Shown here piece after piece: positions 17,321 to 37,362 of a stretch of DNA of 55,110 bases. Within the stretch, counting starts at the first letter, position 1. Each line of letters begins with the position of its first letter. The translations under genes were made by a program, and so were the position numbers. A model generated the notes under the pieces. It saw only the letters and a program-made list of their open reading frames with translations. It ran no database searches and was not told the DNA's origin. Origin of the DNA: an uncultured Bacteroidota bacterium (GTDB lineage: Bacteria; Bacteroidota; Bacteroidia; UKL13-3); the NCBI GenBank assembly GCA_903901345.1, contig CAIUQQ010000330.1, positions 1 through 55,110 of the forward strand, written 5' to 3'.

Positions 17321-17351
17321 TTGTTTTGTTATACCTAATGTTGTACCTTTG
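17321..17351 (+). promoter_or_regulatory. Promoter of the integrase gene
   Basis: TTG (17321-17323), 20-bp spacer, TACCTTTG (17344-17351): a full match to the Bacteroidota consensus. The predicted start is near 17358, about 37 nt before the ATG at 17395. The promoter overlaps the left att-like repeat, so integration or excision could alter integrase expression. Confidence 0.6.
17327..17348. other. Putative left attachment-site repeat (attL-side)
   Basis: TGTTATACCTAATGTTGTACCT (17327-17348) is nearly repeated at 39789-39809 (TGTTGTACCT then ATGTTGTACCT), differing by one base and one indel. It lies directly upstream of the recombinase gene, the usual place for one end of an integrated element. 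Confidence 0.4.
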
Positions 17352-17394
17352 TACTCTGTTGCACCGCATTGCACAACCCTGTAAAATATTAGAT

Positions 17395-18612
17395 ATGGCA
17401 TCAATCAAATTAGTACTCCGAAATGATAAAGTAGGCAAAGATGGCGAAGCACCTTTGTACCTTAGACTTATCAAAGACCGCAAAACCAAATTCATTTCTT
17501 TAGGTGTTAGGTTAGTTCCAAATGAATGGGACGAAGATAAACAAAGAGTTAAAAAGAACCACTCAAATTCTGCAAGAATAAATGCACTACTGGCACAAAA
17601 GGTTGCAGAAGCTGAAGGGCAAGTTGCAGACCTTGAAAGAAAAAAATCACAGCCATCAGCAAAGAAGTTGAAGGAAGCCATCAAAGGTAAAGATGCAACC
17701 AACTTTTTTGAATACAGCTATGCAAGATGCGAAAAACAGAAAACAACATTATCACCTGCCACTTACCGCAATTACACCAAGTACATCAGTAAGTTTGAAA
17801 AATTTATGGGTACATCAGAAGTCTATTTTGAAGACATCAATGTAACCACCCTTAAAGATTTTGCAAACCATTGTTCCAAAACTTTGAGCAATAATAACAC
17901 TACAATTCACTACTCCTTAACCATCCTTTCCATTATGTTCAAGGATGCACAAAGAGAAGATATAATTCCTACCAGTTTGTACCCCTTTGATAAGTTCAGA
18001 GTAAAGAAAGAAAAGAGCAGCCGCAACTACTTAAACAAAGAGCAATTAGCAGCACTCGAAGCATTAGAAGTTTCGCAATTAGGCAAAGCACAAATTTGTA
18101 AGGATATGTTTTTGTTTGCTGTTTATGCAGGTGGTTTGAGATTTGGTGATGTAATAGAATTGCAATGGAAACATTTTTTAGCAGCAGACAATCGTATTTC
18201 TAAAGTTATCCGCAAAACAGGAAGGCAACACAGTTTTAAAATGGGAAGTGTGGCCATTGAAATACTTGATAAGTACAAGACAAAAAACAGTCAGCCCGAA
18301 GATTTTATTTTTCCAATAATGGAGTACAGCGATTTGTATTTCAAGGATAATTTTTTCAGGTCAAAAGAAACAGAACGCCACAATGCACTAACCAATTTTC
18401 ACCTCAATAATTTTGGAAAGACACTCAAACTTTCGTTTTCGTTGTCCTTTCATCTTAGCCGCCATACTTTTGCCACCAGAGCATTAAACAACGGAATGAG
18501 AATAGAACACGTTTCTAAATTGATGGACCATTCAGGCATAGGCATTACACAGGTATATGCAAAAATCATCAATGAAGAATTAGATAAAGCAGTGGATCAA
18601 TATTTAGGTTAA
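17395..18612 (+). CDS. Tyrosine recombinase / integrase
   Basis: The 405-aa site-specific recombinase has an N-terminal arm-binding domain (about 1-95, IKLVLRNDKVGKDGEAPLYL), a SAM-like core-binding domain (about 100-200) and a C-terminal catalytic domain. The active-site set is complete: Arg249 in AGGLRFGDV, Lys274, His353 and Arg356 in HLSRH, His379 in LMDHS, and the nucleophile Tyr388 in QVYAK. This architecture is typical of integrases of Bacteroidota conjugative and mobilisable transposons. It lacks the extra helix segment of integron integrases. The ATG at 17395 follows a matching promoter; upstream in-frame codons are ignored. Confidence 0.93.
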   Translation: MASIKLVLRNDKVGKDGEAPLYLRLIKDRKTKFISLGVRLVPNEWDEDKQRVKKNHSNSARINALLAQKVAEAEGQVADLERKKSQPSAKKLKEAIKGKDATNFFEYSYARCEKQKTTLSPATYRNYTKYISKFEKFMGTSEVYFEDINVTTLKDFANHCSKTLSNNNTTIHYSLTILSIMFKDAQREDIIPTSLYPFDKFRVKKEKSSRNYLNKEQLAALEALEVSQLGKAQICKDMFLFAVYAGGLRFGDVIELQWKHFLAADNRISKVIRKTGRQHSFKMGSVAIEILDKYKTKNSQPEDFIFPIMEYSDLYFKDNFFRSKETERHNALTNFHLNNFGKTLKLSFSLSFHLSRHTFATRALNNGMRIEHVSKLMDHSGIGITQVYAKIINEELDKAVDQYLG

Positions 18613-20740: not shown

Positions 20741-21025
20741 ATGGAAGCAGTAATCCTCACAAAAGACCAGTATCAGGAATTAGTTGTGCGAATGGACGAA
20801 ATTAAGTCCGCACTAACCGAAAAACAGAAAGAACCTAAAGATGTATTTCTTGACAATCAAGATTTCCTTCAACTGATGAACATCAGTAAACGAACCGCAC
20901 AATCTTGGCGTGACGAAGGCATTATTTCATTCTCTCAGGTAGGTTCAAAAATCTACTACCGAATGAGTGATGTGCAAAAGCTATTGGATAGTAATTACAA
21001 CCAAGCATTCAAAAAAAGAAAATGA
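20741..21025 (+). CDS. Excisionase-like helix-turn-helix protein
   Basis: The 94-aa protein has a MerR/excisionase-type winged helix in residues 38-85 (DNQDFLQLMNISKRTAQSWR, then IISFSQVGSKIYYRMSDVQK). Small proteins like this are common beside integrases of Bacteroidota elements. They act as recombination directionality factors or as regulators of replication genes. The first 35 residues form a charged helix that may dimerise. It ends 25 bp before the primase-helicase gene, suggesting an operon. Confidence 0.8.
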   Translation: MEAVILTKDQYQELVVRMDEIKSALTEKQKEPKDVFLDNQDFLQLMNISKRTAQSWRDEGIISFSQVGSKIYYRMSDVQKLLDSNYNQAFKKRK

Positions 21026-21050
21026 GTATTAACCCTGTAAAGTTTAGAAA

Positions 21051-23105
21051 ATGTCCATCACAAAAGAAGCCATTTTGGATAAAATAACAAGCTATGATAT
21101 TTTAAACCATTATTTACAACCATACCACAACACAGGCAGATTAATAAGTGGTAAAAATATTAGCAACCCATTTATAGCACAAAAACAACAATCACCCAGT
21201 TTCAATATTTTTTGTGCATTGCCTCAACATGAGTGGAGATATAAAGATTTTGCCACAGGTGACGAAGGCAGTTGTTTTGATTGTGTAATGAAACTTTTTA
21301 ATGTTTCATTTCCCGAAGCATTGCAAATAATTAACCGTGACCATTGCCTTAACTTGGAAGCTACATTCAAAACAGTTCCACAACCAAAACAAGCACCACC
21401 GGAACAAACAAAGGCAAATTTTTCTGCAAAGAAAAGGCCATTCAGCGATGCTGAATTAACCTTTTGGAATAAGTACAATATTTCCATTGAAACCTTGCAA
21501 CGCTTCAATGTAGCAGCCTTAGAAGAATTTAGCAACATCAGTAAAGAAGGTAAACCATACACAGTTAAGAGCAGTTCCGAAAAATTCATTTTTGCTTATG
21601 ATAACGCCACTTGGTTAAAACTCTACAAACCGTTAGATGAAAAACAATACAAGTTTCAGTATTTAGGTAATAAAGAGCAGGGTTATATTTTTGGATGGAA
21701 GCAACTACCCGACAAAGGCGAAAAGCTATTTATTACAGGTGGTGAAAAAGATGTAATGAGTTTGGCTGCACAAGGTTTCAATGCTATTTCGCTTAACAGC
21801 GAAACCGCAACTTTAGAAAAGGCAATTGCTGATGAATTGAAACTTCGTTTCAATCACATCATTGTACTTTACGATAACGATGCAACAGGCTTGAAACAAT
21901 CAGAACTTTTAGCAATAACACATGGCTTTAATAAAATCACATTACCTACAATTCCGAATAACGGCAAAGACATTTCCGATTACTTCGCCTCAAGAGGCTC
22001 ATTATCGGCTTTTGATGAGTTGCTTTCAGCTTCGCTTCAAGCACCTCCACCCGAAGCACTAAACCCTGATAAGGTTGTGTTTAATGCAGTAGAATTAATG
22101 GCAATGGGAAACTTAGAACCTCAATACCTCATGTCTCCAATTTTGCCACAAAAAGGCACAGCAGTTTTAGCAGGGAAACCCGACACAGGTAAAAGCCAAT
22201 TTGCAAGGCAATTGTGTATTCAAGTTGCTTTAGGCTTAAAATCATTCATTGATTTTGACATTAATCCTATTCACAGCCGTTCTATTTATGTGGCTACTGA
22301 AGATAATTTAGAAAACACACGTTACTTAATGAGCAGGCAGATGAATGGCTTAAATCAAGGTCCAAAAGACAACCTGCGGTTCATCTTTGCCGATACTATG
22401 GAGCAAGAAGAAATACTGAAAGAATTGGACAACCAACTAACAATAGCAGCAGCCGATTTAGTGGTGGTAGATAGTTTTGGCGATATTTTCAAAGGAGGCG
22501 ACAGCAATAACAATATGGCAATGAGGAACACAGTAAAGACCTTTGATAAAATTGCCAAAAAACACAACTGCCTTATCTTGTTTGTTCACCACATCAACAA
22601 AGGAGCATACCGCCAAGCACCAGGACAAGAGCATATACAGGGTGGTGCAGGGCTAATGCAAAAGGTAAGATTAGGTATTCAGCTTTCTGAAGGTGACAAC
22701 AATACAAGATATTTCACAGTGGTAAAGGGCAACTATTGCCCAAAAGAATACAAGCAAAATTCTATCGTTTTAGATTTTTCAGAAGAAACATTTTTGTTTT
22801 CAAATACTGGTAAATTAATCCCCACATCAGAATTAGGAACACAGCCCAATGAAGATAAAAAGGAAGAAAAGTACAATGAGTTAGAAAATATTGCTCAGGA
22901 GATATTCGGTAACAAGTTAGTGACATACAGCAATTTTGTGAAGCATTTCTGTGAAATAACAGGCAAAAGCATCCCAACTGCAAAAAGAGCACACACAAAC
23001 CTTAAAAAGTTAGAAATTATTGTTGAAGCAAACGGCAGCTACAGATTAGTAAACCCAAGCAGCGACACATTCTCAGAAGATGAAGAAGATGAAAATTCAT
23101 TTTAG
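21051..23105 (+). CDS. Primase-helicase replication protein (CHC2 / Toprim / RepA-like ATPase)
   Basis: The 684-aa protein has three modules. Residues about 35-100 form a CHC2-like zinc site (Cys55, His60, Cys75, Cys78). Residues about 205-315 are a Toprim domain with Glu232 (ITGGEKD) and Asp275/Asp277 (LYDNDATG), the metal-binding residues of primase synthesis. Residues about 345-600 are a RecA/RepA-like ATPase with Walker A GKPDTGKS (375-382) and Walker B LVVVDSFGD (Asp474), plus FVHHINKGA. A short winged-helix-like tail and an acidic end follow. It should prime and unwind DNA for replication of the excised element. No relaxase accompanies it. Confidence 0.88.
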   Translation: MSITKEAILDKITSYDILNHYLQPYHNTGRLISGKNISNPFIAQKQQSPSFNIFCALPQHEWRYKDFATGDEGSCFDCVMKLFNVSFPEALQIINRDHCLNLEATFKTVPQPKQAPPEQTKANFSAKKRPFSDAELTFWNKYNISIETLQRFNVAALEEFSNISKEGKPYTVKSSSEKFIFAYDNATWLKLYKPLDEKQYKFQYLGNKEQGYIFGWKQLPDKGEKLFITGGEKDVMSLAAQGFNAISLNSETATLEKAIADELKLRFNHIIVLYDNDATGLKQSELLAITHGFNKITLPTIPNNGKDISDYFASRGSLSAFDELLSASLQAPPPEALNPDKVVFNAVELMAMGNLEPQYLMSPILPQKGTAVLAGKPDTGKSQFARQLCIQVALGLKSFIDFDINPIHSRSIYVATEDNLENTRYLMSRQMNGLNQGPKDNLRFIFADTMEQEEILKELDNQLTIAAADLVVVDSFGDIFKGGDSNNNMAMRNTVKTFDKIAKKHNCLILFVHHINKGAYRQAPGQEHIQGGAGLMQKVRLGIQLSEGDNNTRYFTVVKGNYCPKEYKQNSIVLDFSEETFLFSNTGKLIPTSELGTQPNEDKKEEKYNELENIAQEIFGNKLVTYSNFVKHFCEITGKSIPTAKRAHTNLKKLEIIVEANGSYRLVNPSSDTFSEDEEDENSF

Positions 23106-24794: not shown

Positions 24795-24836
24795 TTGCAC
24801 TTTTTTGCTTTTATTTGACTACTTTTGACAAGTCAA
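24795..24836 (+). promoter_or_regulatory. Promoter and putative operator of the defence operon
   Basis: TTG (24795-24797), 22-bp spacer, TACTTTTG (24820-24827). TTGAC-AA-GTCAA (24825-24836), a palindrome, overlaps the -7 box and start region. This is where a controller (C) protein would bind to autoregulate. The layout supports ATG 24851 as the start of the regulator. Confidence 0.5.
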
Positions 24837-24850
24837 AATTAGTTGAATAC

Positions 24851-25135
24851 ATGAGCTTTGGTGAAACCATACGTAAACAAAGAGAGAGCAAGAAATTACT
24901 ACTTCGGCAAGCTGCTGCCTTTCTTGAAGTAGATACCGCCTTTGTAAGTAAACTCGAAAGAGGTGAACGCAATGCAAGCCGTGAACAGGTAATTAAATTA
25001 GCAGAGTTTCTTGATACACCTGCTGAACCTCTCATTACTATTTGGCTTGCAGATAAAATATCAGATACTATAAACGACAGCAAGGAGGGTGAAGAAGCCT
25101 TGAAACTTGTACTTAAAACCTATAAGAAAAAATGA
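24851..25135 (+). CDS. XRE-family regulator, controller-like, of the defence operon
   Basis: The 94-aa protein (MSFGETIRKQRESK) is a compact XRE helix-turn-helix. The recognition region is LLRQAAAFLEVDTAFVSKLE followed by RGERNASREQVIKLAEFL. A 35-residue helical tail (SDTINDSKEGEEALKLVLKT) may dimerise. Such proteins upstream of restriction genes delay or limit restriction expression. Its stop overlaps the SNF2 gene start by 4 bp (ATGA). A TTG at 24815 would add 12 residues but lies upstream of the predicted transcript start. A palindrome next to the promoter is a likely binding site. Confidence 0.82.
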   Translation: MSFGETIRKQRESKKLLLRQAAAFLEVDTAFVSKLERGERNASREQVIKLAEFLDTPAEPLITIWLADKISDTINDSKEGEEALKLVLKTYKKK

Positions 25136-28056
25136 GCTTAACCCCATACCACGCCAAATATTTTGCTTATGAATTAACCAAACGCTATGCTGCAAACAGT
25201 TTGCAGAAGTTCACCGCTTCGCTTGCCGATGCACAGGTTGATTTAAACCCCCATCAGGTAGATGCTGCATTGTTTGCTTTTCATTCGCCATTGTCAAAAG
25301 GGGCATTATTGGCAGATGAAGTAGGATTGGGTAAAACCATTGAAGCAGGAATTGTTATTTCTCAAAAATGGGCTGAACGCAAACGCAAAATTTTAATTAT
25401 AGCACCTGCCAACCTCCGAAAGCAGTGGAACCAGGAAATTGCAGATAAATTCTTTTTACCATCCGTAATTCTCGAAGCAAAGTCATTCAATCAAGAAATT
25501 GCCAAAGCCAATTTCAATCCTTTCAATCAAACCGATAACATTGTTATTTGCTCATACCAGTTCATAAAGAGCAAAGCCATTTATGTTACAAAAGTAGATT
25601 GGGACTTAGTGGTAATTGATGAAGCACACCGTTTGCGGAATGTTTACAAAACCACCAATAAAATTGCTAAAGCAATTAAAGAAGCTGTTGCCCATGCTCC
25701 AAAGATTTTGCTAACGGCTACGCCATTGCAAAACTCTTTGTTGGAGTTATACGGCTTAGTGAGCATCATTGATGAATATGCTTTTGGAGATTTAAAAAGT
25801 TTCAAAACACAATACACCAGAATTACAGAAAATACCAGCTTTGACGACCTCAAACGCAGGTTAGAACCTATTTGCAAAAGAACATTAAGAAGACAAGTTT
25901 TAGAATACATCAACTACACAAATAGATCCTGCATATTGCAGGAATTTACCCCTCGTGATGACGAAAAGCAGTTGTATGATTTAGTTTCCGATTACTTACA
26001 AAGACCCAATTTGTATGCCTTACCTCCCGGACAGCGTACTTTAATGACTTTGATACTTCGCAAGTTGTTGGCTTCATCTACTTATGCTATTTCAGGCACA
26101 TTGCAAGGCTTGGCAGATAAATTGGAAGCAACCATTGAACGACAAAGCGGACTGCCTGTAAACGTAGATGAAATATTTACCACCAATTACGAAACTTTTG
26201 AAGAACAACAAGACGAGTGGCTTGATGATGATGAAGATAGTGACAGCACAAACGGTAAGGAAGAAAAGGTTTACACACCAGATGAAATAGCTGAAATACG
26301 CCAAGAAATTGATGCTTTAAATGAGTTTAAAAAATTAGCCCAATCCATCAAGGTAAATTCAAAAGGAGAAGTTTTATTTACGGCATTAACCAAAGGTTTT
26401 GAAAAGCTACAAGAACTTGGTGCAAACAAAAAAGCCATCATTTTTACAGAGAGTACCCGAACACAGGAATACCTTAAAAACATTTTAGAAGCAAGAGGTT
26501 ACAAAGATGAAATTGTGTTGTTCAATGGAAGCAACAACGACCCCAAAAGCGGACAAATTTATACAGCTTGGCTTAAAACACACGAAGGCACAGATAGAAT
26601 TACAGGTTCAAGAACGGCTGATAAAAGGGCTGCATTAGTTGATTACTTCCGTGATACTGCAACCATTATGATTGCCACCGAAGCAGCAGCAGAAGGCATC
26701 AATTTACAGTTCTGTTCATTGGTAGTAAACTATGACTTGCCCTGGAACCCACAACGTATTGAACAGCGAATTGGCCGTTGCCATCGTTATGGACAAAAGT
26801 TTGATGTGGTAGTAGTCAATTTCCTAAACAATACCAATGCAGCCGACCAAAGAGTGTATCAATTGTTAGATGAAAAATTCCAATTGTTTAATGGTGTATT
26901 TGGTGCAAGTGATGAAGTATTAGGAGCAATTGAAAGCGGTGTTGATTTTGAAAAACGAATTGTAAAAATCTACCAAACTTGCAGAACAACCGAAGCCATC
27001 CAGTTAGCTTTTGACTTTTTACAGAAGGAAATGGAACCCGAAATTGAACAGGGCATTGACCTTACACGTAAAAAACTATTGGAAAACTTTGATGAAGAAG
27101 TACACGAAAAACTGAAAATCAATTTACAACAAAGCACCGATTACCTTACCAAATTTGAGAATTGGTTGTGGCAGCTTACCAAATATTTTTTAGAACCTTA
27201 TGCCACATTCAACCATTCCGAAAACAGCTTCTTCCTCAATAAAAATCCATTTGCAGGTGAGGCAATTCATAAAGGACCATACAGAGTAGGCAAAAAGCAT
27301 ATTGGTGAAGCACACGAAACCGTTGAAGTAAATCAAAACGAAAACCTTTACCGTATTGGGCATCCATTGGCACAAAAGGTAATTAGCAATTGTAAAGAAG
27401 AAAAATTAGATATACAGGAATTGCAGTTTGATTATTCCATCAGCGATAAAAAAATATTCATTCTCGAAAACTTGGTAGGTAAGCAAGGTTGGTTACAAGC
27501 CAAAGAAATTACTATCTCCAGTTTTGAAAACGAAGACCATATTTTGTTTGCCGCTTTTGATGATGAAGGTAATACTCTTGAACCCGACCAATGCCAACGG
27601 TTGTTTTCACTTCCTGCTAAAGCAGTAAAGACAACGCTTTCATTCAGCGATGCTGAAAAGACAAAGTGTAAAGAAATATACCACACACATCAATTGGGTA
27701 TCATTGAAGAAAACCGCAAACGCAACCACAACTTTTTTGATGAAGAAGTAGATAAGTTAGAAAAGTGGAGTGAAGATGTACGTAACAGCATCAAGTATGA
27801 AATAAAGGAATTGGATAAGGAAATTAAAACTAAAAAAACAGAAGCCCGAAAGTTGCTCAACTTAGAGCAGAAAGTAAAGGAACAACGGATTATAAAAGAC
27901 TTGGAAAAGAAATTAGCAGAAAAGCGATACAACCAATATCAGAACGAAGATGATATTGAAAACCGAAAAGATAAATTGTTGGATGAAGTAGAACAGCGAT
28001 TGAAACAACAAACAACAGAATTGGATTTATTCACCATAAGATTTAAAGTAATTTAA
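25132..28056 (+). CDS. SNF2-family helicase/translocase
   Basis: The 974-aa superfamily 2 protein has motif I DEVGLGKT (62-69), motif II DEAH (163-166) in LVVIDEAHRLRN, and motif III LLTATPLQNS. In the second lobe it has AAAEGINLQFCSLVVNYDLP and motif VI QRIGRCHRYGQ near 545. A Asp/Glu-rich linker sits between the lobes (about 355-385). The last 120 residues are a long charged coiled coil. The closest functional analogues are RapA-like and DISARM DrmD-like double-strand DNA translocases. No DISARM drmA or drmB partner is present. It probably tracks along DNA as part of the restriction complex encoded downstream. The next gene starts 2 bp after its stop. Confidence 0.92.
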   Translation: MSLTPYHAKYFAYELTKRYAANSLQKFTASLADAQVDLNPHQVDAALFAFHSPLSKGALLADEVGLGKTIEAGIVISQKWAERKRKILIIAPANLRKQWNQEIADKFFLPSVILEAKSFNQEIAKANFNPFNQTDNIVICSYQFIKSKAIYVTKVDWDLVVIDEAHRLRNVYKTTNKIAKAIKEAVAHAPKILLTATPLQNSLLELYGLVSIIDEYAFGDLKSFKTQYTRITENTSFDDLKRRLEPICKRTLRRQVLEYINYTNRSCILQEFTPRDDEKQLYDLVSDYLQRPNLYALPPGQRTLMTLILRKLLASSTYAISGTLQGLADKLEATIERQSGLPVNVDEIFTTNYETFEEQQDEWLDDDEDSDSTNGKEEKVYTPDEIAEIRQEIDALNEFKKLAQSIKVNSKGEVLFTALTKGFEKLQELGANKKAIIFTESTRTQEYLKNILEARGYKDEIVLFNGSNNDPKSGQIYTAWLKTHEGTDRITGSRTADKRAALVDYFRDTATIMIATEAAAEGINLQFCSLVVNYDLPWNPQRIEQRIGRCHRYGQKFDVVVVNFLNNTNAADQRVYQLLDEKFQLFNGVFGASDEVLGAIESGVDFEKRIVKIYQTCRTTEAIQLAFDFLQKEMEPEIEQGIDLTRKKLLENFDEEVHEKLKINLQQSTDYLTKFENWLWQLTKYFLEPYATFNHSENSFFLNKNPFAGEAIHKGPYRVGKKHIGEAHETVEVNQNENLYRIGHPLAQKVISNCKEEKLDIQELQFDYSISDKKIFILENLVGKQGWLQAKEITISSFENEDHILFAAFDDEGNTLEPDQCQRLFSLPAKAVKTTLSFSDAEKTKCKEIYHTHQLGIIEENRKRNHNFFDEEVDKLEKWSEDVRNSIKYEIKELDKEIKTKKTEARKLLNLEQKVKEQRIIKDLEKKLAEKRYNQYQNEDDIENRKDKLLDEVEQRLKQQTTELDLFTIRFKVI

Positions 28057-28058
28057 CT

Positions 28059-29750
28059 ATGGAAAACGAAGAATTAATTTTATTGGTTGACGAGTTAAGG
28101 GCTTTACCTAAAGAGAATGAATGGGTTGAGTTTAAATCAGGCAACGCTACTACCAATGAAAAGTTTGGCAAGTATATTTCCGCCATTTCTAATGCTGCTT
28201 GCATAAATAATCAAGCGTTTGGGTATTTAATTTTTGGTATTAACGATACTACACATCAAATAGAAGGAACTAATTTTAAGTTTAAAAATAGAAAGGAAGG
28301 AAATGGCGAGTTAGAACTATGGGTAAGACGATTACTACACCCTTCCGTTAAGTTTCAGTTTTTCCCTTGTCAGTATGGTAAATTCTATCTCGAAATTTTT
28401 AAAATACCTGCTGCGAATGGTGAGCCTACTCATTTTGAAAAAATACCCTACATAAGGTTTGATAGCAGCCTAACAGACCTTAGAAACTTTCCTCATTTCA
28501 TAAAGGCTATATACAATTCACAAGAAGATTGGTCGGCAGCTATAATAGAAAAAGCAACCATAAATAATTTAGATGAAAATGCTATAAACGAAGCCCGTTT
28601 AAAGTTTAAGGAAAAAATGTCAGGCAAAGCTATTTACAACGAAATTGATAAGTGGAACAATGAAACTTTTTTAGATAAGGCCAAAATTACCATTGAAGGT
28701 AAAATAACCAATACAGCTATTTTATTGCTTGGCAAGACGGAAGCTGCTCATTTCATTTCTCCCTCTGTAGGTCAGATTACTTGGAAATTAGACACGGATG
28801 AAAAGGCGTATGAACATTTTGAAATTCCACTTTTCTCCACCGTAAATGATGTGTTGAACAGGATTAGAAATGTTAAGTACAAATTCTTTCCGAACAACCA
28901 ATTAATTGCCATTGAGGTTTTAAAGTACGACCCCGAAGTTATTTTGGAAGCCTTAAATAATTGCATTGCACACCAAGATTATAGTGCCCACTCTCGTATT
29001 GTGCTTACCGAACAAACAGGTAAGCTTATCTTTAGTAACGCAGGTAATTTTTTTGAAGGTAAAGCCGATGATTACAGCTTAGGAGATAAAACCCCAAAGA
29101 AATATAGAAATAAATGGTTGGCAGATGCTATGGTAAATTTGAATATGATTGACAGCCTTGGTTTTGGTATTCATAAAATGTTCAAAAGCCAAAGGCAACG
29201 TTTTTTTCCATTGCCCGATTATGCTAAATCAAAAAGAAACGAAGTGGTGCTGGAAATATATGGACATAGTATAGATGAAAACTATTCTAAATTACTCATT
29301 GAACGAAAGGATGATTTAACCTTAACGGAAGTGGTGCTTTTAGATAAAGTGCAAAAAGCACAACCAATAACCGAAGATGCAGCAAAATTATTAAAACGAA
29401 AAGGTTTTATTGAAGGTAGAAAACCTGACTATTTCATTTCGGCTCAAATAGCTGAGGCAACTAACCAGAAAGCCGAATACATAAAAAATAGAGGTTTAAA
29501 GGATGACCATTATAAAAAATTGGTCATTGATCTTATTGGCAAATATGGTAAGGCTACTAAAGAGGATATTGACCGTTTACTTTTAGACATTCTTCCTGCG
29601 GTTTTAGATGAACAGAAGAAGAAAAACAAAGTTCGCAACTTGGTGTATGCCATGCATAAAAAAGACCAAACTATTGAAAATCAAGGAACTACAAGAAATC
29701 CTCTTTGGATTTTGAGTTCATCTAAAACCAATGATAAACACCATAATTAG
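28059..29750 (+). CDS. AlbA_2 (Schlafen-type) DNA-binding protein with ATPase-like region
   Basis: The 563-aa protein begins with an AlbA_2/Schlafen-type domain (about 10-140: ENEWVEFKSGNATTNEKFGK, GYLIFGINDTTHQIEGT, then YLEIFKIPAA). A GHKL-like ATP-binding segment follows at about 285-390 (EALNNCIAHQDYSAHSRIVL, then GFGIHKMFKSQ), and winged-helix-like segments lie in the last 150 residues. Members are annotated as ATP-binding transcriptional regulators, but Schlafen/AlbA domains also bind or cut nucleic acid in defence systems. It lies between helicase and methyltransferase genes of one operon, so a role as DNA sensor or specificity partner is plausible inference. Confidence 0.82.
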   Translation: MENEELILLVDELRALPKENEWVEFKSGNATTNEKFGKYISAISNAACINNQAFGYLIFGINDTTHQIEGTNFKFKNRKEGNGELELWVRRLLHPSVKFQFFPCQYGKFYLEIFKIPAANGEPTHFEKIPYIRFDSSLTDLRNFPHFIKAIYNSQEDWSAAIIEKATINNLDENAINEARLKFKEKMSGKAIYNEIDKWNNETFLDKAKITIEGKITNTAILLLGKTEAAHFISPSVGQITWKLDTDEKAYEHFEIPLFSTVNDVLNRIRNVKYKFFPNNQLIAIEVLKYDPEVILEALNNCIAHQDYSAHSRIVLTEQTGKLIFSNAGNFFEGKADDYSLGDKTPKKYRNKWLADAMVNLNMIDSLGFGIHKMFKSQRQRFFPLPDYAKSKRNEVVLEIYGHSIDENYSKLLIERKDDLTLTEVVLLDKVQKAQPITEDAAKLLKRKGFIEGRKPDYFISAQIAEATNQKAEYIKNRGLKDDHYKKLVIDLIGKYGKATKEDIDRLLLDILPAVLDEQKKKNKVRNLVYAMHKKDQTIENQGTTRNPLWILSSSKTNDKHHN

Positions 29751-29791
29751 ACAAACTTTTAGATAAAGTTTAGATAAACAAAGCATTCGAC

Positions 29792-31450
29792 ATGAGCAAA
29801 AAAATACTACAAAAATTAGAACTCACATGGATAGGCAAGGGCAACGAACCCAAGCTGGAACCACGTATATTAATAGAAGACCCAAACAAAAGTTTTGGCG
29901 ACCCCAAAAGCGAAAACATGCTGATACATGGCGATAACCTTTTGGCATTAAAAGCACTGGAAGAAAATTATTCAGGTGCAGTTAAGTGTATTTATATTGA
30001 TCCTCCATACAATACTGGGCAAGCCTTTAAGCACTATGATGACGGTTTAGAACATTCATTGTGGTTGAATTTAATGTATCAGCGTATAAATATTCTGTAT
30101 AAATTATTAAAAAAAGATGGAGTTCTTTTTATCAACTTGGATGAGATGGAACATGCTTATTGTAAAGTTGTTTGTGATGAAATATTTGGCAGGCAAAATT
30201 ATATTGGAGATTTAATTTGGCAGAAAAGAAAAGGAGGCGGAAATGATTCAAGGTATTTTGCAATTGATCATGATTATATACTTGTTTATGCAAAATCTAA
30301 AGATAAGTTGGTACACAAAGTAAAATGGAGAGTTTCTCAGAATGAGGAGTACTTGAAACGATATAAAGAAATTGATGACAATGGAGATAGATATTATTGG
30401 GATACAATAGCGAGAGATGGGTTACAGAATCCAATTCCAGTAAGTGTAGTTTGTCCAGATGGATTTATATTGACTATAAATTCACAAAAAGCTCAAGATA
30501 CAATCGAAAAAGGGTTAAAGGATGGCACTATTAGATTAATTAAAGGTAGAAATGGATGGACTCTCCATCATAGAGTTTATATGCCCGAGGGCCAAGTTTT
30601 AAGGTCAATTCTTACCGAAATAGGCACTAATAAAACCGCAGGTGATGAAATTAAAGAATTATTTGGTTCCGATAATACATTCGATTATCCGAAACCTGAA
30701 AGTTTGATTAGCAAAATCCTAGAGTTGACAACAAAAAAAGGTGATTTAGTAATAGATTCATTTCTTGGATCTGGAACTACTGCTGCAGTTGCACACAAAA
30801 TGAAACGTAAATGGATAGGAATTGAATTAGGAGAACATGCAACAACCCACTGCTTACCAAGAATGCAACAAGTTGTTTCAGGTAAAGACAAAGGCGGTAT
30901 ATCAGAAGCTGTAAATTGGAAAGGCGGTGGTGGTTTTAAATTCTACACCCTTGCTCCATCATTGGTTCAAAAAGACAAATACGGTACTGAAATTATCAAC
31001 CCACAATACAATGCCAACATGTTAGCAGCAGCAATGGCAAAGCAAGAGGGCTTCCGTTACCTACCCGATGAAAACAACTATTGGAAACAAGGCATGAGCA
31101 GTGAAAAAGATTTCATTTTTACCACTACTCAATTTGTTACAGTTGCCATGTTAGATAAGTTAACCGAAGAACTAAAACCAGGTGAAAGTTTATTGGTATG
31201 CTGCAAAAGCTTTGCAAAAGGTTGTGCCAATCGCCACACCAATATCACCATCAAAAAAATCCCACAAATGCTTTTAGGCCGTTGTGAGTTTGGCAAAGAT
31301 GATTACAGTTTCAATATTGTAAACTTACCCCACAATGATGATACAGATATTGAAATAGAGGATAGCGAAGAAAGTGAAGCACCCAAAACAGAAAAGAAAA
31401 CCAAAGCCAAAAAACAAAAAGACGATGATACACAATCTTCACTTTTTTAA
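29792..31450 (+). CDS. Type III restriction-modification Mod, adenine-N6 DNA methyltransferase
   Basis: The 552-aa protein has catalytic motif IV DPPYNTG (Asp70-Tyr73) before the SAM-binding motif I DSFLGSGTT (322-330). This is the beta-class order of type III Mod and related adenine methyltransferases. The stretch between them (about 130-290) is the target-recognition region. The C-terminus is a Lys/acid-rich tail ending TQSSLF. It should methylate one strand of an asymmetric site and form a complex with the Res subunit encoded 20 bp downstream. The middle of the gene (about 30.06-30.83 kb) looks more AT-rich than its flanks, as expected for a swapped recognition domain; this was judged by eye. 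Confidence 0.93.
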   Translation: MSKKILQKLELTWIGKGNEPKLEPRILIEDPNKSFGDPKSENMLIHGDNLLALKALEENYSGAVKCIYIDPPYNTGQAFKHYDDGLEHSLWLNLMYQRINILYKLLKKDGVLFINLDEMEHAYCKVVCDEIFGRQNYIGDLIWQKRKGGGNDSRYFAIDHDYILVYAKSKDKLVHKVKWRVSQNEEYLKRYKEIDDNGDRYYWDTIARDGLQNPIPVSVVCPDGFILTINSQKAQDTIEKGLKDGTIRLIKGRNGWTLHHRVYMPEGQVLRSILTEIGTNKTAGDEIKELFGSDNTFDYPKPESLISKILELTTKKGDLVIDSFLGSGTTAAVAHKMKRKWIGIELGEHATTHCLPRMQQVVSGKDKGGISEAVNWKGGGGFKFYTLAPSLVQKDKYGTEIINPQYNANMLAAAMAKQEGFRYLPDENNYWKQGMSSEKDFIFTTTQFVTVAMLDKLTEELKPGESLLVCCKSFAKGCANRHTNITIKKIPQMLLGRCEFGKDDYSFNIVNLPHNDDTDIEIEDSEESEAPKTEKKTKAKKQKDDDTQSSLF

Positions 31451-31470
31451 TCCAATAAGCAGCAAATAAT

Positions 31471-34146
31471 ATGAACCAAATAGCAGAAAATATAAAGCAA
31501 CGTTTATCGCTTCGCAAACCCTTACAAGAGGCGTTGGATAAACTCACTCAGCTTGCAGCAGAGTTGGAGTTATCCAAAGAAGTTGACCTTAAAGCTGAAC
31601 TGGAAAAAGTGCAAGCACTTTACCCCACTTGCAGCGATTTTGAGCGAGAGTTTCCATCCATTTGTTTCAGCATTGCCACAGGTGTAGGTAAAACCCGTTT
31701 GATGGGTGCTTGCATTGCTTACTTGTATTTAGAAAAAGGCATCAAGAACTTTTTTGTATTAGCCCCAAACCTTACTATTTACAACAAACTCATAGAAGAT
31801 TTTGGCAATAGCAGCAATCCAAAATATGTATTCAATGGCATTGCCGATTTTGTACACAATAAGCCTGTTATCATTACAGGCGATAATTACAATCAGGTAA
31901 GTTCACTATTCAGCGAAACAGAAATCAGGATCAACATTTTCAATGTTTCCAAATTTGCAAGAGAAACCAAGCCAGTTATAGAAGGTGGCCGTAATATGGC
32001 CCCTCGTATCAAAAGGCTTTCAGAATATTTAGGGCAAAGCTATTGGGAATATCTAAGTGGCTTAAATGACTTGGTAATTTTAATGGACGAAGCTCACCGC
32101 TACCATGCCGATAAAAGTAAAGTTGCCATCAACGAATTACAACCCATTTTAGGTATTGAATTAACTGCAACACCTATTGACGAAAAAAGCAATCAGTTCA
32201 GAAATGTGGTGTATGAATACAGTTTGGCTCAGGCACTCACAGATGGCTTGTTTGTAAAGAACCCAACCATTGCCAAGCGAAGAGATTTTAGCCCCAACGG
32301 TAGAAGCATTGAAGAAATAGAAAAGATAAAATTAGAAGATGCAGTTAGTATTCACGAGGACACCAAGCAGGAATTAAAACTCTATGCTTTAAACACAGGC
32401 AAAAGATTGGTAAAGCCTTTTATATTGGTTGTTTGCAGAGATACCACACATGCAAAATCAGTATATGACCTTGTTTCTTCCAACGATTTTTATGAAGGAG
32501 CATTTGCCAATAAAGTATTACAAATTGATAGCACCACCCGAAACGAAGAATTAATTGAGCAACAATTTATTTCCTTAGAACATGAAGACAACGAAATAGA
32601 AATTGTAATCCATGTAAACATGCTCAAAGAAGGTTGGGATGTAACCAACCTTTACACCATCGTTCCATTAAGGGCTGCCAATGCTTCCATATTGGTAGAA
32701 CAAACCATTGGTAGAGGTTTGCGTTTGCCATTTAGCGGAGAAAGAACAGGAAATGAGAAAGTAGATAAATTAACCGTTGTAGCACATGATAATTTCGATA
32801 CGGTAATTGCAGCAGCCCAAGACCCAAATTCTATTCTAAACAAACTTAAATTCATTGAAATAGATGAAGAGCAGTTAAAGCAAAGAGTAGAAGTTGTTAC
32901 AGTTCAAAATACCATTCAGCAAAACATACAGAAAGAACAGGAAGAAGTAAATAAAATAGTTGAACCAGCACAAAAGCAAAAACAGCAAAATATAGTTGAT
33001 GCAAAAAAAGTGTTGGTAAATGTTATTCCGTTTTTCAATACCAATTCGCAGGTTAAAAAAGTAGATGACCTGATGAAGCCCGAAGTAAGAGCACAGGTAA
33101 TGGAAGCGGTAAACAAAGAACTCAATTCAGGGCAAGGTAATTTATTTGCAGTAAGCATAGCAGCCGAAGCAGAAGTGATGTATGAAAAATTAGTTGCCGA
33201 TTTCAAAAAGAACATCATCGAAATTCCACGTATGGACTTGGTGCAAGGTGAAGTAACAGCCAGCTTTGAGGATTTCGATTTAAACAGCACAGATTTCACT
33301 TATGACCAACTCAATGAGGAAATAGTAAGGATTGGCCTCAAAGACCGTAAAATGGACATTATAGAGGTTAAAAAAGGGGTGTATTATGGCAAACCAGAGA
33401 AGCTATTAATATCCGAACTAATCAACTTCTCAGAGATTGACTATGATACCAATGCCGACCTATTACACAAGTTGGCAAAACAAGCCATTGCAGAACTACT
33501 AACCAATTTAAAAGACGGTGAAGACCTCAATACATTAGTGTTTCAGTGGCGTGGAGCAATAGCAAATAAAATGTACCATCAAATGATGGAACATTTCAAA
33601 CTCCACGAACCCGATTACATCAAGCCCAATGTAAAACCCTTCACCAAGATAGAAGATTGGAATTTCACTACCCTAAAAAACGAAGGACGAAAAGATTACA
33701 GAGATGATAGTTTCCCGGCAGTGCAAGTTCCTAAATACGTTTTCATAGGCTTTGAAAAATCTTGCCACTTCGAGTATAAGTTTGACAGCAGAACAGAACA
33801 AATACTTGCCATGATATTAGAAAACGACAAGGAAGTAATGAAATGGCTAAGACCAGCACCAAACCAATTCCGTATCTATTGGCATCACAACAGTAAAATT
33901 TACGAACCCGATTTTGTAGTAGAAACAGCAGATTGCATTTACCTAATTGAAACCAAAAGAGCAGACGAAATACCAAGCAACGAAGTACAGGCAAAAGCAC
34001 AAGCAGCCTTAAAATACTGCAACTACGCAACCGAATACACAGCAGAATTTGGCGGTAAACAATGGAAATATGTATTAATCCCTCATGACCAGGTTAGTAA
34101 GACAAATAGTTTTAAGGGAGTGGTATCAAATAATATTTATAAGTAG
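31471..34146 (+). CDS. Type III restriction endonuclease Res
   Basis: The 891-aa SF2 helicase-nuclease has Walker A TGVGKT (70-75), motif II DEAH (206-209) in LMDEAHRYH, motif III LTATP, motif V NMLKEGWDV and motif VI EQTIGRGLRLPF. The PD-(D/E)xK nuclease lies near the C-terminus: Glu812-Pro813-Asp814 in YEPDFVVE, then Glu827-x-Lys829 in YLIETK. All key residues are present, so the enzyme should be active. With Mod it should cut DNA carrying inversely oriented unmodified sites after ATP-driven movement. It is the fifth gene of the operon. Confidence 0.93.
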   Translation: MNQIAENIKQRLSLRKPLQEALDKLTQLAAELELSKEVDLKAELEKVQALYPTCSDFEREFPSICFSIATGVGKTRLMGACIAYLYLEKGIKNFFVLAPNLTIYNKLIEDFGNSSNPKYVFNGIADFVHNKPVIITGDNYNQVSSLFSETEIRINIFNVSKFARETKPVIEGGRNMAPRIKRLSEYLGQSYWEYLSGLNDLVILMDEAHRYHADKSKVAINELQPILGIELTATPIDEKSNQFRNVVYEYSLAQALTDGLFVKNPTIAKRRDFSPNGRSIEEIEKIKLEDAVSIHEDTKQELKLYALNTGKRLVKPFILVVCRDTTHAKSVYDLVSSNDFYEGAFANKVLQIDSTTRNEELIEQQFISLEHEDNEIEIVIHVNMLKEGWDVTNLYTIVPLRAANASILVEQTIGRGLRLPFSGERTGNEKVDKLTVVAHDNFDTVIAAAQDPNSILNKLKFIEIDEEQLKQRVEVVTVQNTIQQNIQKEQEEVNKIVEPAQKQKQQNIVDAKKVLVNVIPFFNTNSQVKKVDDLMKPEVRAQVMEAVNKELNSGQGNLFAVSIAAEAEVMYEKLVADFKKNIIEIPRMDLVQGEVTASFEDFDLNSTDFTYDQLNEEIVRIGLKDRKMDIIEVKKGVYYGKPEKLLISELINFSEIDYDTNADLLHKLAKQAIAELLTNLKDGEDLNTLVFQWRGAIANKMYHQMMEHFKLHEPDYIKPNVKPFTKIEDWNFTTLKNEGRKDYRDDSFPAVQVPKYVFIGFEKSCHFEYKFDSRTEQILAMILENDKEVMKWLRPAPNQFRIYWHHNSKIYEPDFVVETADCIYLIETKRADEIPSNEVQAKAQAALKYCNYATEYTAEFGGKQWKYVLIPHDQVSKTNSFKGVVSNNIYK

Positions 34147-34164
34147 AAACCATAAAATAGTATC

Positions 34165-34674
34165 ATGAATTATTTAGGTATAAATTGTAGTGTAGAGAAA
34201 GGTTTTGGAAGAGTTATCATTGTTATTCTTAATAGTGAAAATGAAGTATTTCGTCATGTTTTTAGAAGCCCATCTGTTTTTTCTTTCAATAAAAATTCTG
34301 CTGAAATTTTGAATTGGCATAGAGATAATATAACATCATTAATAAGTCAGTTCAACATTGAAGGTGTTGTTGTAAAGAAGACGGAAAGAAATTCCTTTGT
34401 ATCAAGAATTAAAAACTCAGGTATTTTTAAACTTTATTTAGAAGGCGTAATACTTTCCCTTGCAGGTAGCATTGGTAAACTAAATAAACATTTTTATAAA
34501 ACAGACATACAAGCAATACTTCCTACTCCGAATGTTTTCGATTTAGATATTGAAACCATTTGCGAACAAAACGGACTAACAAATTCATTTACAGAAATTC
34601 CAAACTCAGAGATTGAACCTACTAAAGAGGCTTTACTTGCAGTTATATCACTAAAAACAATCGTACAAGCATGA
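34165..34674 (+). CDS. Putative RNase H-fold protein of unknown function
   Basis: The 169-aa protein opens MNYLGINCSVEKGFGRVIIV, like the first strands of RuvC/RNase H-fold proteins. It has a middle strand EGVVVKKTE, a helix EGVILSLAG and an end EALLAVISLK that echo the RuvC layout. The acidic residue normally found in the first strand is not in the usual position (Asn7), so catalysis is doubtful. The gene starts 18 bp after res and overlaps the kinase start by 4 bp. Its role is unknown. The fold assignment is a pattern-based guess. Confidence 0.6.
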   Translation: MNYLGINCSVEKGFGRVIIVILNSENEVFRHVFRSPSVFSFNKNSAEILNWHRDNITSLISQFNIEGVVVKKTERNSFVSRIKNSGIFKLYLEGVILSLAGSIGKLNKHFYKTDIQAILPTPNVFDLDIETICEQNGLTNSFTEIPNSEIEPTKEALLAVISLKTIVQA

Positions 34675-35810
34675 TTAATACTATCGTAGAAATTGAACAT
34701 CAAGCAGATTTTGAAGAACAAGGCTTTTACTCTAAATCATATTTGGCTTTAGACAAGAGATTAAATAGACATGTTGCAGTAAAAGACATCATATATGAAA
34801 ATCTTACCTCAGATGATGATTTCGGTAAATACTTTGAGGAGGCATATAAACTATCAATGGCATCACACCCCCGTGTATTACCTGTTTATTATGTTGGGAT
34901 AGACCATAATGGTGGCGAAGAAACTATACCTAGAATAGTCACTTGTTTTTTTAAGAAAGGTTCCTTGAATAGTTATTTACAATCCATTTATGCATCTAAT
35001 AAATCAATGGCGTTAGATGAAATAATTAGATATGCTCACGACATTATCCAAGGCATGATACACCTTCATGCATTAGACATCGTTCATTTGGATTTAAAAG
35101 CTTCAAATATTTACATTGGCGATGATGGTAAAATGGTACTTGGTGATTTTGGTCAAGCAAAATTTATTAAAGATGGCATCATACATGAGCATGTAGATTT
35201 ATACCCTGCTTTAGCTCCAGTAGAGGCCGTAGCAAAAAAAGCATTTGATAAAACAACAGATATTTATCAGTTTGGCCTTTTATTATATTCAATGGTATGC
35301 TATACAAAATACCGTGATACAATTGAAAATACATATAAGATAAGCACTCCACAATTAAAAGTAATCTTCAGAGAAAAACCTGCTAATGTTGCTGACCTGA
35401 AATCAGAGTTTAAAGCAAATATGAAATTGTTTAATGAAGCAATAAAAACTTCAAATTTTCCAAACAGAGCAGATTATCCATACTATGTGCCTAAAAAAAT
35501 ACAAGATGTCATTCATAAATGCTTAGAGCCAGTAGTTGCAAATCGTTACAATAATTTCTATGAAATACAAGCAGACTTAAATGAGTTTGTTTTTCCAAAG
35601 GGTGTTTCAGAGTATTACCAAGATTTAGTAACAAATAATATACACTTTAAGAAAGAAGAAAAAATGTGTGTAATTTCAATTGTTCCTTCAGGTGCTAAAT
35701 TTGATTTAAGTGCAACTAAAAATGGACGAAATGTTGCTAAGTGTACTAAACCAAATATATCTCAAGCAAAGCTCCAGAAAATATTGCTTACATTTGCAGA
35801 GGAAATATGA
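34671..35810 (+). CDS. Serine/threonine protein kinase (Hanks type)
   Basis: The 379-aa soluble kinase has the invariant Lys38 in HVAVKDI, the helix C acidic region EEAYK (about 56-60), catalytic loop HLDLKASN (139-146, Asp141 present; HLD replaces HRD) and DFG at 159-161. The activation-segment APE is altered to APVEA. Helical lobe motifs TTDIYQFGLLLYSMVC and HKCLEPVVANRYNNFYEIQADL follow. There is no membrane segment or PASTA domain, unlike housekeeping PrkC-type kinases. Kinases in defence islands can trigger growth arrest on infection (Stk2 is the known example). Overlaps of 4 bp on both sides show tight coupling with the RNase H-like and zinc-ribbon genes. Confidence 0.9.
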   Translation: MINTIVEIEHQADFEEQGFYSKSYLALDKRLNRHVAVKDIIYENLTSDDDFGKYFEEAYKLSMASHPRVLPVYYVGIDHNGGEETIPRIVTCFFKKGSLNSYLQSIYASNKSMALDEIIRYAHDIIQGMIHLHALDIVHLDLKASNIYIGDDGKMVLGDFGQAKFIKDGIIHEHVDLYPALAPVEAVAKKAFDKTTDIYQFGLLLYSMVCYTKYRDTIENTYKISTPQLKVIFREKPANVADLKSEFKANMKLFNEAIKTSNFPNRADYPYYVPKKIQDVIHKCLEPVVANRYNNFYEIQADLNEFVFPKGVSEYYQDLVTNNIHFKKEEKMCVISIVPSGAKFDLSATKNGRNVAKCTKPNISQAKLQKILLTFAEEI

Positions 35811-36022
35811 AGCAATTTCATTGTAAATATTGTAATAGACCGATGGCAGTTTCCTCTTTGGAATATCGTTCAAATTCTTATTGTAATAAGTGTTTTGACG
35901 AAAGAGCCGCCAGCAAACCCGTAGCAAAGAGTAGCTTGAATACTTTTGAATTTATGGGTGAGGTTATTCCCATGTCCAATGCCAACAGTATTACTAAACC
36001 TTATAAGAAAAGTCATTTTTAG
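35807..36022 (+). CDS. Small zinc-ribbon protein
   Basis: The 71-aa protein has two CxxC knuckles, Cys6-Cys9 and Cys26-Cys29, which form a zinc ribbon. A 40-residue polar tail follows (EFMGEVIPMSNANS). Its ATG overlaps the kinase stop (ATGA). It could be a kinase substrate, adaptor or nucleic-acid-binding subunit; none of this is shown by sequence. It is the last gene of the operon. Confidence 0.78.
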   Translation: MKQFHCKYCNRPMAVSSLEYRSNSYCNKCFDERAASKPVAKSSLNTFEFMGEVIPMSNANSITKPYKKSHF

Positions 36023-36248
36023 GGCATTCCCTTTCAGGTCGGGCTTTCCGCTACAATCTTTTGCGAAAAGCAAAAGGATTTCCACTTCAATCCCTAATGC
36101 AAAAAGAAGCGGTGTTCGTTCCTCACTTGTAGTTTGATACACCCCCCCCAGCCAACCGCACAGAAATACGGCTTAGTGCTTTGCAACCGCACAAGGCAAA
36201 CCCTTCAAAGCACTCTATGGTATTGCAGTCAGTTTTTAACTGTCATAC

Positions 36249-36357
36249 TTTTTGTGTGGGGTGTTGCCAACCCATACAGCACATTGCTATCCTCATTCCG
36301 CTAAAGCTCCATTGCGGTAGCAAAGAGCTGTGCCACCACACCACCCCAAACAAAAAG
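36249..36357. repeat. Imperfect inverted repeat
   Basis: CTTTTTGTGTGGGGTG (from 36249) pairs with CACCCCAAACAAAAAG (36342-36357). Inner complementary words (CAGCACATTGC / GAGCTGTG) lie within the enclosed 75 bp. Confidence 0.55.
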
Positions 36358-36421
36358 ACATTTCACTCCAACCACCACCACCGTTCCATTTATGCCAGTA
36401 TAAAAACTGCCTGAAGCTAAA

Positions 36422-36508
36422 TAACATAATGTGGCATTATATTACTTTTTCTCCCCTGCTTATGCAAGCATCCAACCGCACAAAAAGTCATATAATAACA
36501 TTATGTTA
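36422..36508. repeat. Near-perfect inverted repeat with nested hairpin
   Basis: The left arm 36422-36450 starts TAACATAATG and ends ATTACTTTTT. The right arm 36482-36508 starts AAAAAGTCAT and ends CATTATGTTA. They match apart from one mismatch and a small bulge. The 31-nt loop contains TGCTT-atgc-AAGCA. Confidence 0.75.
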
Positions 36509-36607
36509 AATAGCCAATACCATAGCCATTTTGATAAAATGGAAGCCGTATTTCTTGCCAACCCACACCCCCCGAAACCACGCACCCCATCCACCCTTTT
36601 CAGCGGT

Positions 36608-36917: not shown

Positions 36918-37084
36918 GACTTGTTAGCCCCATTCCAACGCACTGTATACATCTTAATTATCACTATAAGAATAAGAAAATACAACAAACATTTTGAATA
37001 CAATTATTGATTAGAATTTGAAATACTGAATACATTTTGAAATAACGAAAAGGAAAAAAATAAAAATAAAAAGTGCAGCAAAAT

Positions 37085-37235: not shown

Positions 37236-37362
37236 TGCAAGTGCTTTCTTTTTTTTTCTGTTTTTTTTCTTTGTCAAAAATTTTATTGGTGTTGTGCGAA
37301 GCGTAGCGAAGCACAGTACAGGCAAGGGGCAGAAGCAGATACAAACTTTAAAAGCAAGTATT

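What the first reader, a model, noticed from the sequence alone, without database searches (positions are those of the whole stretch)
24851..36022. Eight-gene composite defence operon: XRE - SNF2 - AlbA_2 - type III Mod/Res - RNase H-like - kinase - zinc ribbon
Gaps are 41 bp or less and four junctions overlap or nearly touch, with one promoter found only before the XRE gene. A type III restriction pair is normally two genes. Here it is bracketed by a SNF2 translocase, an AlbA_2 ATP-binding protein and a kinase module on an integrated element. The parts are each known from defence systems (restriction, DISARM-like SNF2, Schlafen domains, Stk2-like kinases), but the combination as one unit is not one I can name.
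Basis: partly seen in the sequence, partly recalled or inferred. Interest (0 to 1): 0.75.

Follow-up and report, generated by a model that had tools for sequence, protein, structure and literature searches.

The report
Restriction operon with swappable defence plug-ins
By sequence, this run of eight bacterial genes is a known kind of three-gene DNA restriction system (type III with an SNF2 helicase) with extra genes, likely back-up defences, added on: one gene in a slot that holds other genes in related bacteria, a regulator gene in front preceded by a conserved DNA palindrome, and at the back a three-gene kinase cassette that one other genome carries behind an unrelated restriction system.

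Summary
The eight genes are there as described: one strand, gaps of -4 to 41 bp. They are not one eight-gene machine. The constant part is SNF2-Mod-Res, a type III restriction system with a helicase gene 5' of mod, already published for Eco86II and BspHIV (PMC8259958). In 20 related loci the place between SNF2 and Mod is empty (2) or holds one of seven other cassettes (18); AlbA_2 is in none. Locus L026 (SNF2 and Res 96% identical) is the same operon without AlbA_2 and without the last three genes. AlbA_2 relatives sit inside type I, type III and BREX operons. The last three genes (RuvC fold lacking its first catalytic Asp, Ser/Thr kinase with intact motifs, zinc ribbon) are a linked, rare cassette; the one other context seen is the 3' end of a type I operon on a related element, behind a homologous XRE gene. 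The XRE family is a lead: TTGAC-N2..9-GTCAA lies upstream in 15 of 23 XRE loci (0.19 in random stretches), ahead of type I, II and III restriction and other defence genes. Defence and regulation are inferred. New variant of a known kind; the trio and the cross-system XRE switch are the new parts.

The parts
24820..24827 (+). promoter-like TAnnTTTG box
   Evidence: motif match only
24825..24836 (.). TTGACAAGTCAA palindrome, proposed XRE operator
   Evidence: only exact match of TTGACNNGTCAA in the window; same place in L026 and L035; 15 of 23 XRE loci carry TTGAC-N2..9-GTCAA upstream
24851..25135 (+). XRE-family regulator (HTH_3)
   Evidence: relatives in front of defence genes
25132..28056 (+). 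SNF2 helicase-like ATPase, core gene
   Evidence: 45.7% identical over 979 columns to the SNF2 beside mod in E. coli NCTC86
28059..29750 (+). AlbA_2 (Schlafen-type) + HATPase_c_4 protein, slot gene
   Evidence: missing from L026 and from 20 of 20 related loci
29792..31450 (+). type III Mod, beta-class order of motifs
   Evidence: variable middle
31471..34146 (+). type III Res with helicase motifs and C-terminal PD..ExK
34165..34674 (+). 169-aa RuvC-fold protein without Asp at the first catalytic place
34671..35810 (+). Ser/Thr protein kinase
35807..36022 (+). 71-aa zinc-ribbon-like protein (two CxxC)
17326..18612 (+). tyrosine integrase of the element that carries the operon
20741..23105 (+). 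HTH_17 gene and Toprim/AAA_25 gene of the element
   Evidence: HTH_17 relatives in L031 and L072
37294..37785 (+). DUF6943 gene behind the trio, also behind the trio in G929

Best explanation
The operon is a three-gene type III restriction core (SNF2, Mod, Res) behind an XRE gene with a conserved upstream palindrome, with an AlbA_2 gene in the slot between SNF2 and Mod and a RuvC-like/kinase/zinc-ribbon trio, known from one other restriction operon, at the end; it likely restricts unmodified foreign DNA under XRE control, and the added genes would act as back-up defences. Shown here: the gene order, the constant core, the variable slot, the occurrence of AlbA_2 and of the trio in other restriction operons, the palindrome, and the catalytic motifs. 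[quoted passage not shown] Mod methylates host DNA at a site set by its variable middle; Res cuts unmethylated DNA; SNF2 moves along or remodels DNA for the complex. Also inferred: AlbA_2 acts as a nuclease-like effector when restriction is blocked, as PrrC does in EcoprrI; the RuvC-fold protein binds abnormal DNA without cutting it and switches on the kinase, with the zinc ribbon as adaptor; the kinase target is unknown.
For: A Mod of the window's family follows SNF2 in 18 of 20 related loci, while the slot is empty in 2 and holds seven kinds of other cassette in 18. Starting from Res, SNF2 is in the operon in 6 of 12 genomes, with contigs broken in 3. L026 shows the operon without AlbA_2 and trio, at 90% DNA identity on both sides of the AlbA_2 site. 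The same three-gene system is published (PMC8259958), and NCTC86 has it in that order. AlbA_2 relatives lie inside two type I, one type III and one BREX operon, out of six relatives. The trio is linked (29 of 51 contig lengths shared, 0.18 by chance) and lies behind a type I operon in G929. Two relatives of the element, L031 and L072, show no trio in the stretches read. Palindrome: 15 of 23, random 0.19.
Against: SNF2 is absent or a remnant in 3 of the 9 Res loci with readable context, and in print it was needed neither for methylation nor seen in active Eco86II, so its part in restriction is open. The trio has only two known contexts, both on related elements with DUF6943 behind it, so its tie to restriction could be a tie to the element. 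The spacer range of the palindrome was widened after seeing the same sequences: the window's own N2 form is exact in only 2 of the 18 new XRE loci, and one copy of it (L072) is not near an XRE gene. No activity is shown for any gene.
Confidence: 0.6

Rival explanations
1. The trio is general cargo of the integrative element (signalling, toxin-antitoxin-like or element control) and sits behind restriction operons only because both ride at the same place in the element; it does not cooperate with restriction.
For: Both known contexts (window, G929) are on related elements with integrase, 634-aa-like protein and HTH_17 in front and DUF6943 behind; the trio is absent from the closest operon, L026, and from the 20 related loci.
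Against: Two other relatives of the element, L031 and L072, show no trio in the stretches read; in both contexts the trio follows the operon within 18 and 52 bp on the same strand.
Confidence: 0.27
2. All eight genes form one obligate machine.
For: Tight packing.
Against: 0 of 20 related loci have AlbA_2 and none shows the trio; L026 lacks both; AlbA_2 and the trio occur in other operons.
Confidence: 0.05
3. It is a variant of DISARM, Hma or MADS, with SNF2 and kinase as parts of such a system.
For: SNF2 hits DrmD (696 bits) and HmaA (174 bits); the kinase's best PADLOC hit is mad6 (124.6 bits). RefSeq calls the HTH gene before a related E. coli SNF2 'MAD1'.
Against: DrmD_b 699 bits against cut-off 950, MADS6 63 against 460. 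No DrmB, DrmC, HmaB or HmaC among the hits shown (best 25 per protein); Mod and Res are best matched by type III models.
Confidence: 0.03

Closest known systems
Type III restriction systems with a helicase-like ATPase gene 5' of mod (Eco86II, BspHIV; PMC8259958)
   Same: Same three core genes in the same order; SNF2 homologous along its length to the one beside mod in E. coli NCTC86.
   Different: Window Mod and Res belong to another subfamily (Mod 26% identical, no meaningful Res match to NCTC86); AlbA_2 in the slot, trio behind, XRE in front. Which base is methylated is unknown.
Defence genes embedded in restriction operons (guilt by embedding; TgvAB and DarTG2 in type I, PrrC in EcoprrI)
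   Same: Extra genes inside a restriction operon; several of the same families (GmrSD, RhuM, BRO-N/PDC-S13, PDC-M04).
   Different: Here the host is an SNF2-type III operon, and the trio has no counterpart that I found.
RptR and C-protein-type controllers of restriction operons
   Same: A small regulator gene first in the operon with a palindrome at the promoter.
   Different: XRE family, not RptR; the same palindrome form precedes many kinds of defence operon.
DISARM DrmD
   Same: Best named family of the SNF2 protein.
   Different: Below the family cut-off; other DISARM genes not found in the operon.
MADS kinase MAD6
   Same: Best PADLOC match of the kinase.
   Different: Far below the NCBIfam cut-off (63 against 460 bits); other MADS genes not found among the hits shown.

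Membership tests
Type III RM with SNF2 (Eco86II/BspHIV group) | Beta-class Mod: DPPY before the FxGxG motif | tested here: met
   DPPY at 70, FLGSG at 324; MTase_III 573 bits
Type III RM with SNF2 (Eco86II/BspHIV group) | Res with helicase motifs and PD-(D/E)xK nuclease motif | tested here: met
   GVGKT, DEAH, PD..ETK at 813; REase_III 541 bits
Type III RM with SNF2 (Eco86II/BspHIV group) | Helicase-like ATPase gene 5' of mod, homologous to that of Eco86II | tested here: met
   45.7% over 979 columns to the NCTC86 SNF2; that NCTC86 locus = Eco86II is inferred from strain and order
Type III RM with SNF2 (Eco86II/BspHIV group) | One-strand methylation of an asymmetric site and restriction | not testable with these tools
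   needs methylome and cutting or phage assays
DISARM | DrmD above the family cut-off | tested here: not met
   699 of 950 bits
DISARM | DrmB and DrmC genes | tested here: not met
   none among the hits shown for the eight genes and two upstream ones
Hma | m5C methylase HmaB and ATPase HmaC beside HmaA | tested here: not met
   none among the hits shown; Mod is N6_N4_Mtase
MADS | Kinase above the MAD6 cut-off | tested here: not met
   63 of 460 bits
RuvC resolvase | RuvC fold | tested here: met
RuvC resolvase | First catalytic Asp (strand 1; place recalled, aligned by eye) | tested here: not met
   N 23, H 6, S 1, T 1, R 1 of 32; E74 is kept in 32 of 32
Controller (C-protein-like) regulator of restriction operons | Small HTH gene first in restriction operons with a conserved palindrome at its promoter | tested here: met
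   restriction or methyltransferase genes behind it in 15 of 18 readable new loci; palindrome in 15 of 23
Controller (C-protein-like) regulator of restriction operons | Binds the operator and controls transcription | not testable with these tools
   needs binding and reporter assays

The most novel reading that the evidence does not exclude
Two new things meet here. First, one XRE family with one operator form (TTGAC-N2..9-GTCAA) is a cross-system defence switch in Bacteroidota: it opens type I, II and III restriction, TIR-STING, ABC-3C and other defence operons, so unlike C proteins it is not tied to one restriction type. Second, the RuvC-like/kinase/zinc-ribbon trio is a new portable back-up module: a catalytically dead resolvase senses branched or damaged DNA and fires a protein kinase when restriction, of whatever type, has met its target or has been blocked.
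Probability: 0.35. Interest if true: 0.75.

Novelty: new variant of a known kind. Interest (0 to 1): 0.52.

Why it matters
It shows that the SNF2-type III restriction operon is a chassis with slots for exchangeable defence genes, as described before for type I RM and Hma and BREX operons. It points to a rare kinase module, undescribed in my searches, shared by a type I and a type III operon, and to one regulator family with a readable palindrome in front of many kinds of defence operon, which makes 'who switches defence on' testable by one binding assay.

Tried and rejected
Rejected: DISARM, Hma and MADS membership; an obligate eight-gene unit. Led nowhere: the RuvC-like family in viral contigs, no relative; the RuvC-like protein in plasmids, no match; the RuvC-like protein in 295 class genomes and its family in 64 order genomes, own copy only; the kinase in 295 class genomes at E 1e-40, own copy only; the RuvC-like family in 397 genomes of G021's family, one hit; in 3 genomes of that hit's genus, the same one. 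Profile search of PDB sequences with the RuvC-like family: best E 0.34, nothing meaningful. Direct repeats of 13 bp or more between 16200-17400 and 36000-38500 as attachment sites: none printed. Paper searches for the SNF2/AlbA/kinase set, RuvC-like/kinase/zinc-ribbon with restriction and an XRE operator across restriction and CBASS listed no paper that I recognised as describing the trio or the XRE switch; a search for MADS papers listed none on that system. led to PMC8259958. The library lacks most subscription papers, so absence there is weak.

What I saw of papers: PMC8259958, found passages (parts of its abstract among them) and the whole of its section 17; PMC8565338, PMC12839542, PMC12458937, PMC12255303, PMC11411939, PMC12988326, PMC12707154, PMC2292703 and PMC4490356, found passages only; Payne et al. 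2024 (guilt by embedding) only as cited there; the rest search listings only. Catalytic residues of RuvC, and the Bacteroidota promoter form TAnnTTTG, are recalled.

Rows dropped before counts: of 32 loci mapped (L033, L036, L011) end within or soon after SNF2, and 9 (L047-L055) have a more distant SNF2 (under 56% identity) or a shortened one (L053, L054); 20 remain (L040 among them has a stop inside SNF2; L056 has only part of SNF2). Of 57 XRE matches (own included) I fetched 20 of the 56 others, nearly all from the top of the list; in 2 (L131, L141) my ORF caller found no XRE; 18 remain. In one search, 69 of 71 RuvC-like clusters had a contig length.
Full report
1. Eight same-strand genes from 24851 to 36022, gaps -4 to 41 bp. 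The catalytic motifs searched are present. The operon lies on an integrative element with a tyrosine integrase, an HTH_17 gene and a Toprim/AAA_25 gene to its left.

2. The constant core is SNF2-Mod-Res. I searched SNF2 in 296 phylum genomes (20 hits at E 1e-60 or better, own included) and in genome contigs (12 loci), fetched surroundings and mapped 32 loci. In 20 loci SNF2 is at least 56% identical (BLASTP), not internally shortened, and the next genes are readable. A Mod of the window's family follows in 18; L040 has none and L046 has a different type III pair. Starting from Res (12 of 296 genomes, own included), SNF2 is in the operon in 6, contigs are broken in 3, only the two ends of SNF2 are left in 1 (L086) and it is absent in 2 (L085, L087). 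On plasmids the SNF2 relative occurs in 79 of 72,556 records at E 1e-30. I read 8 of the 40 listed regions: in 7 an annotated methyltransferase and a DEAD/DEAH helicase follow on the same strand; in the eighth (L095) a methyltransferase follows and my stretch ends there. The same SNF2 family stands beside more than one Mod-Res group: the window type; a group with Mod of 627-685 aa (L046, L048, L049, which share a Res cluster; L092 and L096 placed here by size); and a group with Mod of 1000-1120 aa (L047, L050, L091, L095, L097, NCTC86).

3. This core is published. PMC8259958 reports type III systems with 'a third protein', a helicase/ATPase gene 5' of mod, in more than 500 genomes. It was not needed for methylation and its peptides were not found in the partially purified, active Eco86II preparation. 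In E. coli NCTC86 I found SNF2-Mod-Res in that order, with 45.7% identity between the two SNF2 proteins over 979 columns. That this is the Eco86II locus is inferred from strain and gene order.

4. The place between SNF2 and Mod is a slot. In the 20 loci: empty 2; HigB-like toxin + HTH/IrrE 6; PLD-like 3; BRO-N 3; DUF3800 + PDC-M04B 2; AAA_15 + AIPR 2; RhuM 1; GmrSD 1 (families were scanned for one representative of each BLAST cluster; the HigB-like match is below Pfam's cut-off). AlbA_2: 0 of 20. Between Mod and Res, L038 and L039 have YhcG/DUF1016 and L035 a fragment of it; in the other group L048 and L049 have Fic. E. coli and plasmid examples carry Abi, AAA + S8 peptidase, DUF262, AIPR with VapC, and AAA + DUF4276. 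L026 is close to an unfilled copy: 90% DNA identity from 24813 to 28066 and from 30688 to the end of Res, nothing between SNF2 and Mod, no trio. Its Mod differs from the window's mainly in residues 101-300 (18-48% identical per 50 residues), as expected of a changed target-recognition domain (the domain order is that described for EcoP15I, passages).

5. AlbA_2 is a travelling plug-in. Six relatives in 197 other class genomes at E 1e-50: between HsdS and HsdR in L071 and, with small extra genes, in L072; between Res and Mod of another type III system in L074 (the Res match is weak, 63 bits); between PglX and PglZ of a BREX operon in L073; beside a PLD-SNF2 helicase in L069; no restriction neighbour seen in L070.

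6. The trio is a linked cassette. The protein collection holds 71 RuvC-like (E 1e-3), 82 kinase (E 1e-20) and 26 zinc-ribbon clusters (E 0.01, the window's own among them). Of 51 RuvC-like clusters with contigs of 2 kb or more, 29 share the exact longest-contig length with a kinase cluster (0.18 with jittered lengths); 6 of 17 zinc-ribbon clusters do. One genome, G929, has the trio on a contig of 3,752,971 bases, the length listed for a kinase named Tamlana crocina, so I take it to be that species. There the order is integrase-like gene, 634-aa-like protein, HTH genes, primase-like genes, XRE (47% identical), HsdM, HsdS, RhuM, HsdR, Piwi, GmrSD, RuvC-like, kinase, zinc ribbon, and DUF6943 further on. 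The same frame, XRE in front and trio behind, thus encloses a type I operon there and a type III operon here. Two further relatives of the element, L031 (SNF2 operon) and L072 (type I operon), show no trio and no XRE in the stretches read. All 74 kinases of at least 340 aa (of 82) keep the three motifs searched. The RuvC-like family lacks Asp at position 7 in 32 of 32 aligned sequences, while E74 is invariant and position 155 is E or D in 31, so it is probably not a normal resolvase. The catalytic places are recalled and aligned by eye.

7. The XRE gene. The palindrome TTGACAAGTCAA occurs once in the window, at the promoter-like box, and at the same place in L026 and L035; in G929 it lies 113 bp upstream of the XRE start my ORF caller chose. 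One more copy, in L072, is not near an XRE gene. XRE relatives are common: 57 matches in 37 of 149 class genomes, own included. In 18 readable loci of the 20 fetched, the genes behind XRE include methyltransferases or restriction genes in 15 (12 by Pfam, L134 and L139 by BLAST only, L125 by a fragment 96% identical to L126's HsdM), a PLD-helicase in L129, an ABC-3C gene in L135 and a TIR-STING gene in L142; L133 starts with a ThsB-like TIR gene. The window's exact form TTGACNNGTCAA is upstream in 2 of these 18. After seeing their upstream stretches I widened the spacer: with L026, L030, L035, L102 and the window (23 in all), 15 have TTGAC-N2..9-GTCAA in the 150 bp upstream (0.19 of 23 in random stretches, maximum 2 in 500 draws). 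Seven more have one mismatch and one (L030) has none; at up to one mismatch random stretches give 1.39 of 23, maximum 6 in 200 draws. HTH genes in front of six other SNF2 operons show no BLAST match to this XRE, so the regulator is itself exchangeable.

8. How it works (inferred). XRE would hold the promoter down; on release the type III core methylates self and cuts foreign DNA. AlbA_2 and the trio would be second lines, like PrrC in EcoprrI (passage in PMC12707154). Whether SNF2 joins the Mod-Res complex is open.

9. Weighing. The core is known, embedding is known (passages), the variant is new. The trio and the cross-system XRE palindrome are the parts a specialist may not expect; both rest on sequence alone.

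Noticed in passing
window 23208-24775: A gene pair just upstream of the operon: the first (121 aa) has a weak PADLOC match to PD-T4-10_A (E 1e-7), the second (400 aa) a sub-cut-off DUF6575 match. It may be another small defence system on the element.
   Followed up: partly
L061 12130-14229 (-); L072 14306-16348 (+): A Piwi-domain protein (699 aa) directly behind hsdR in a type I operon, with a 44% relative in the same place in L072.
   Followed up: no
L142 1301-3276 (+): An XRE relative with the palindrome stands before a 343-aa gene without Pfam match and a TIR-STING gene, CBASS-like.
   Followed up: partly
L086 1160-9729 (+): Only the two ends of SNF2 remain, followed by stacked HigB-like + HTH, RhuM, BRO-N-like and further genes before Mod and Res: several slot cassettes in one place.
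   Followed up: no
window 36023-37290: Long stretch behind the operon without a convincing gene, C-rich on the + strand (327 C, 181 G); 7 of the window's 9 + strand CCGCAC copies lie within 36000-38300.
   Followed up: partly
L099 17808-20889 (+): RefSeq labels the small HTH gene before SNF2 as MAD1 of the MADS system although the operon behind it is SNF2-Abi-Mod-Res; the name may mislead annotation-based surveys.
   Followed up: no
L031 15031-16748 (+): Peptidase_S24 (UmuD-like) and ImpB/MucB/SamB (UmuC-like) genes start 9 bp after Res in one relative.
   Followed up: no
L072 16372-19901 (+): Behind the type I operon and Piwi gene follow further same-strand genes that by eye look like PLD, VWA and PP2C proteins (no family search made).
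   Followed up: no
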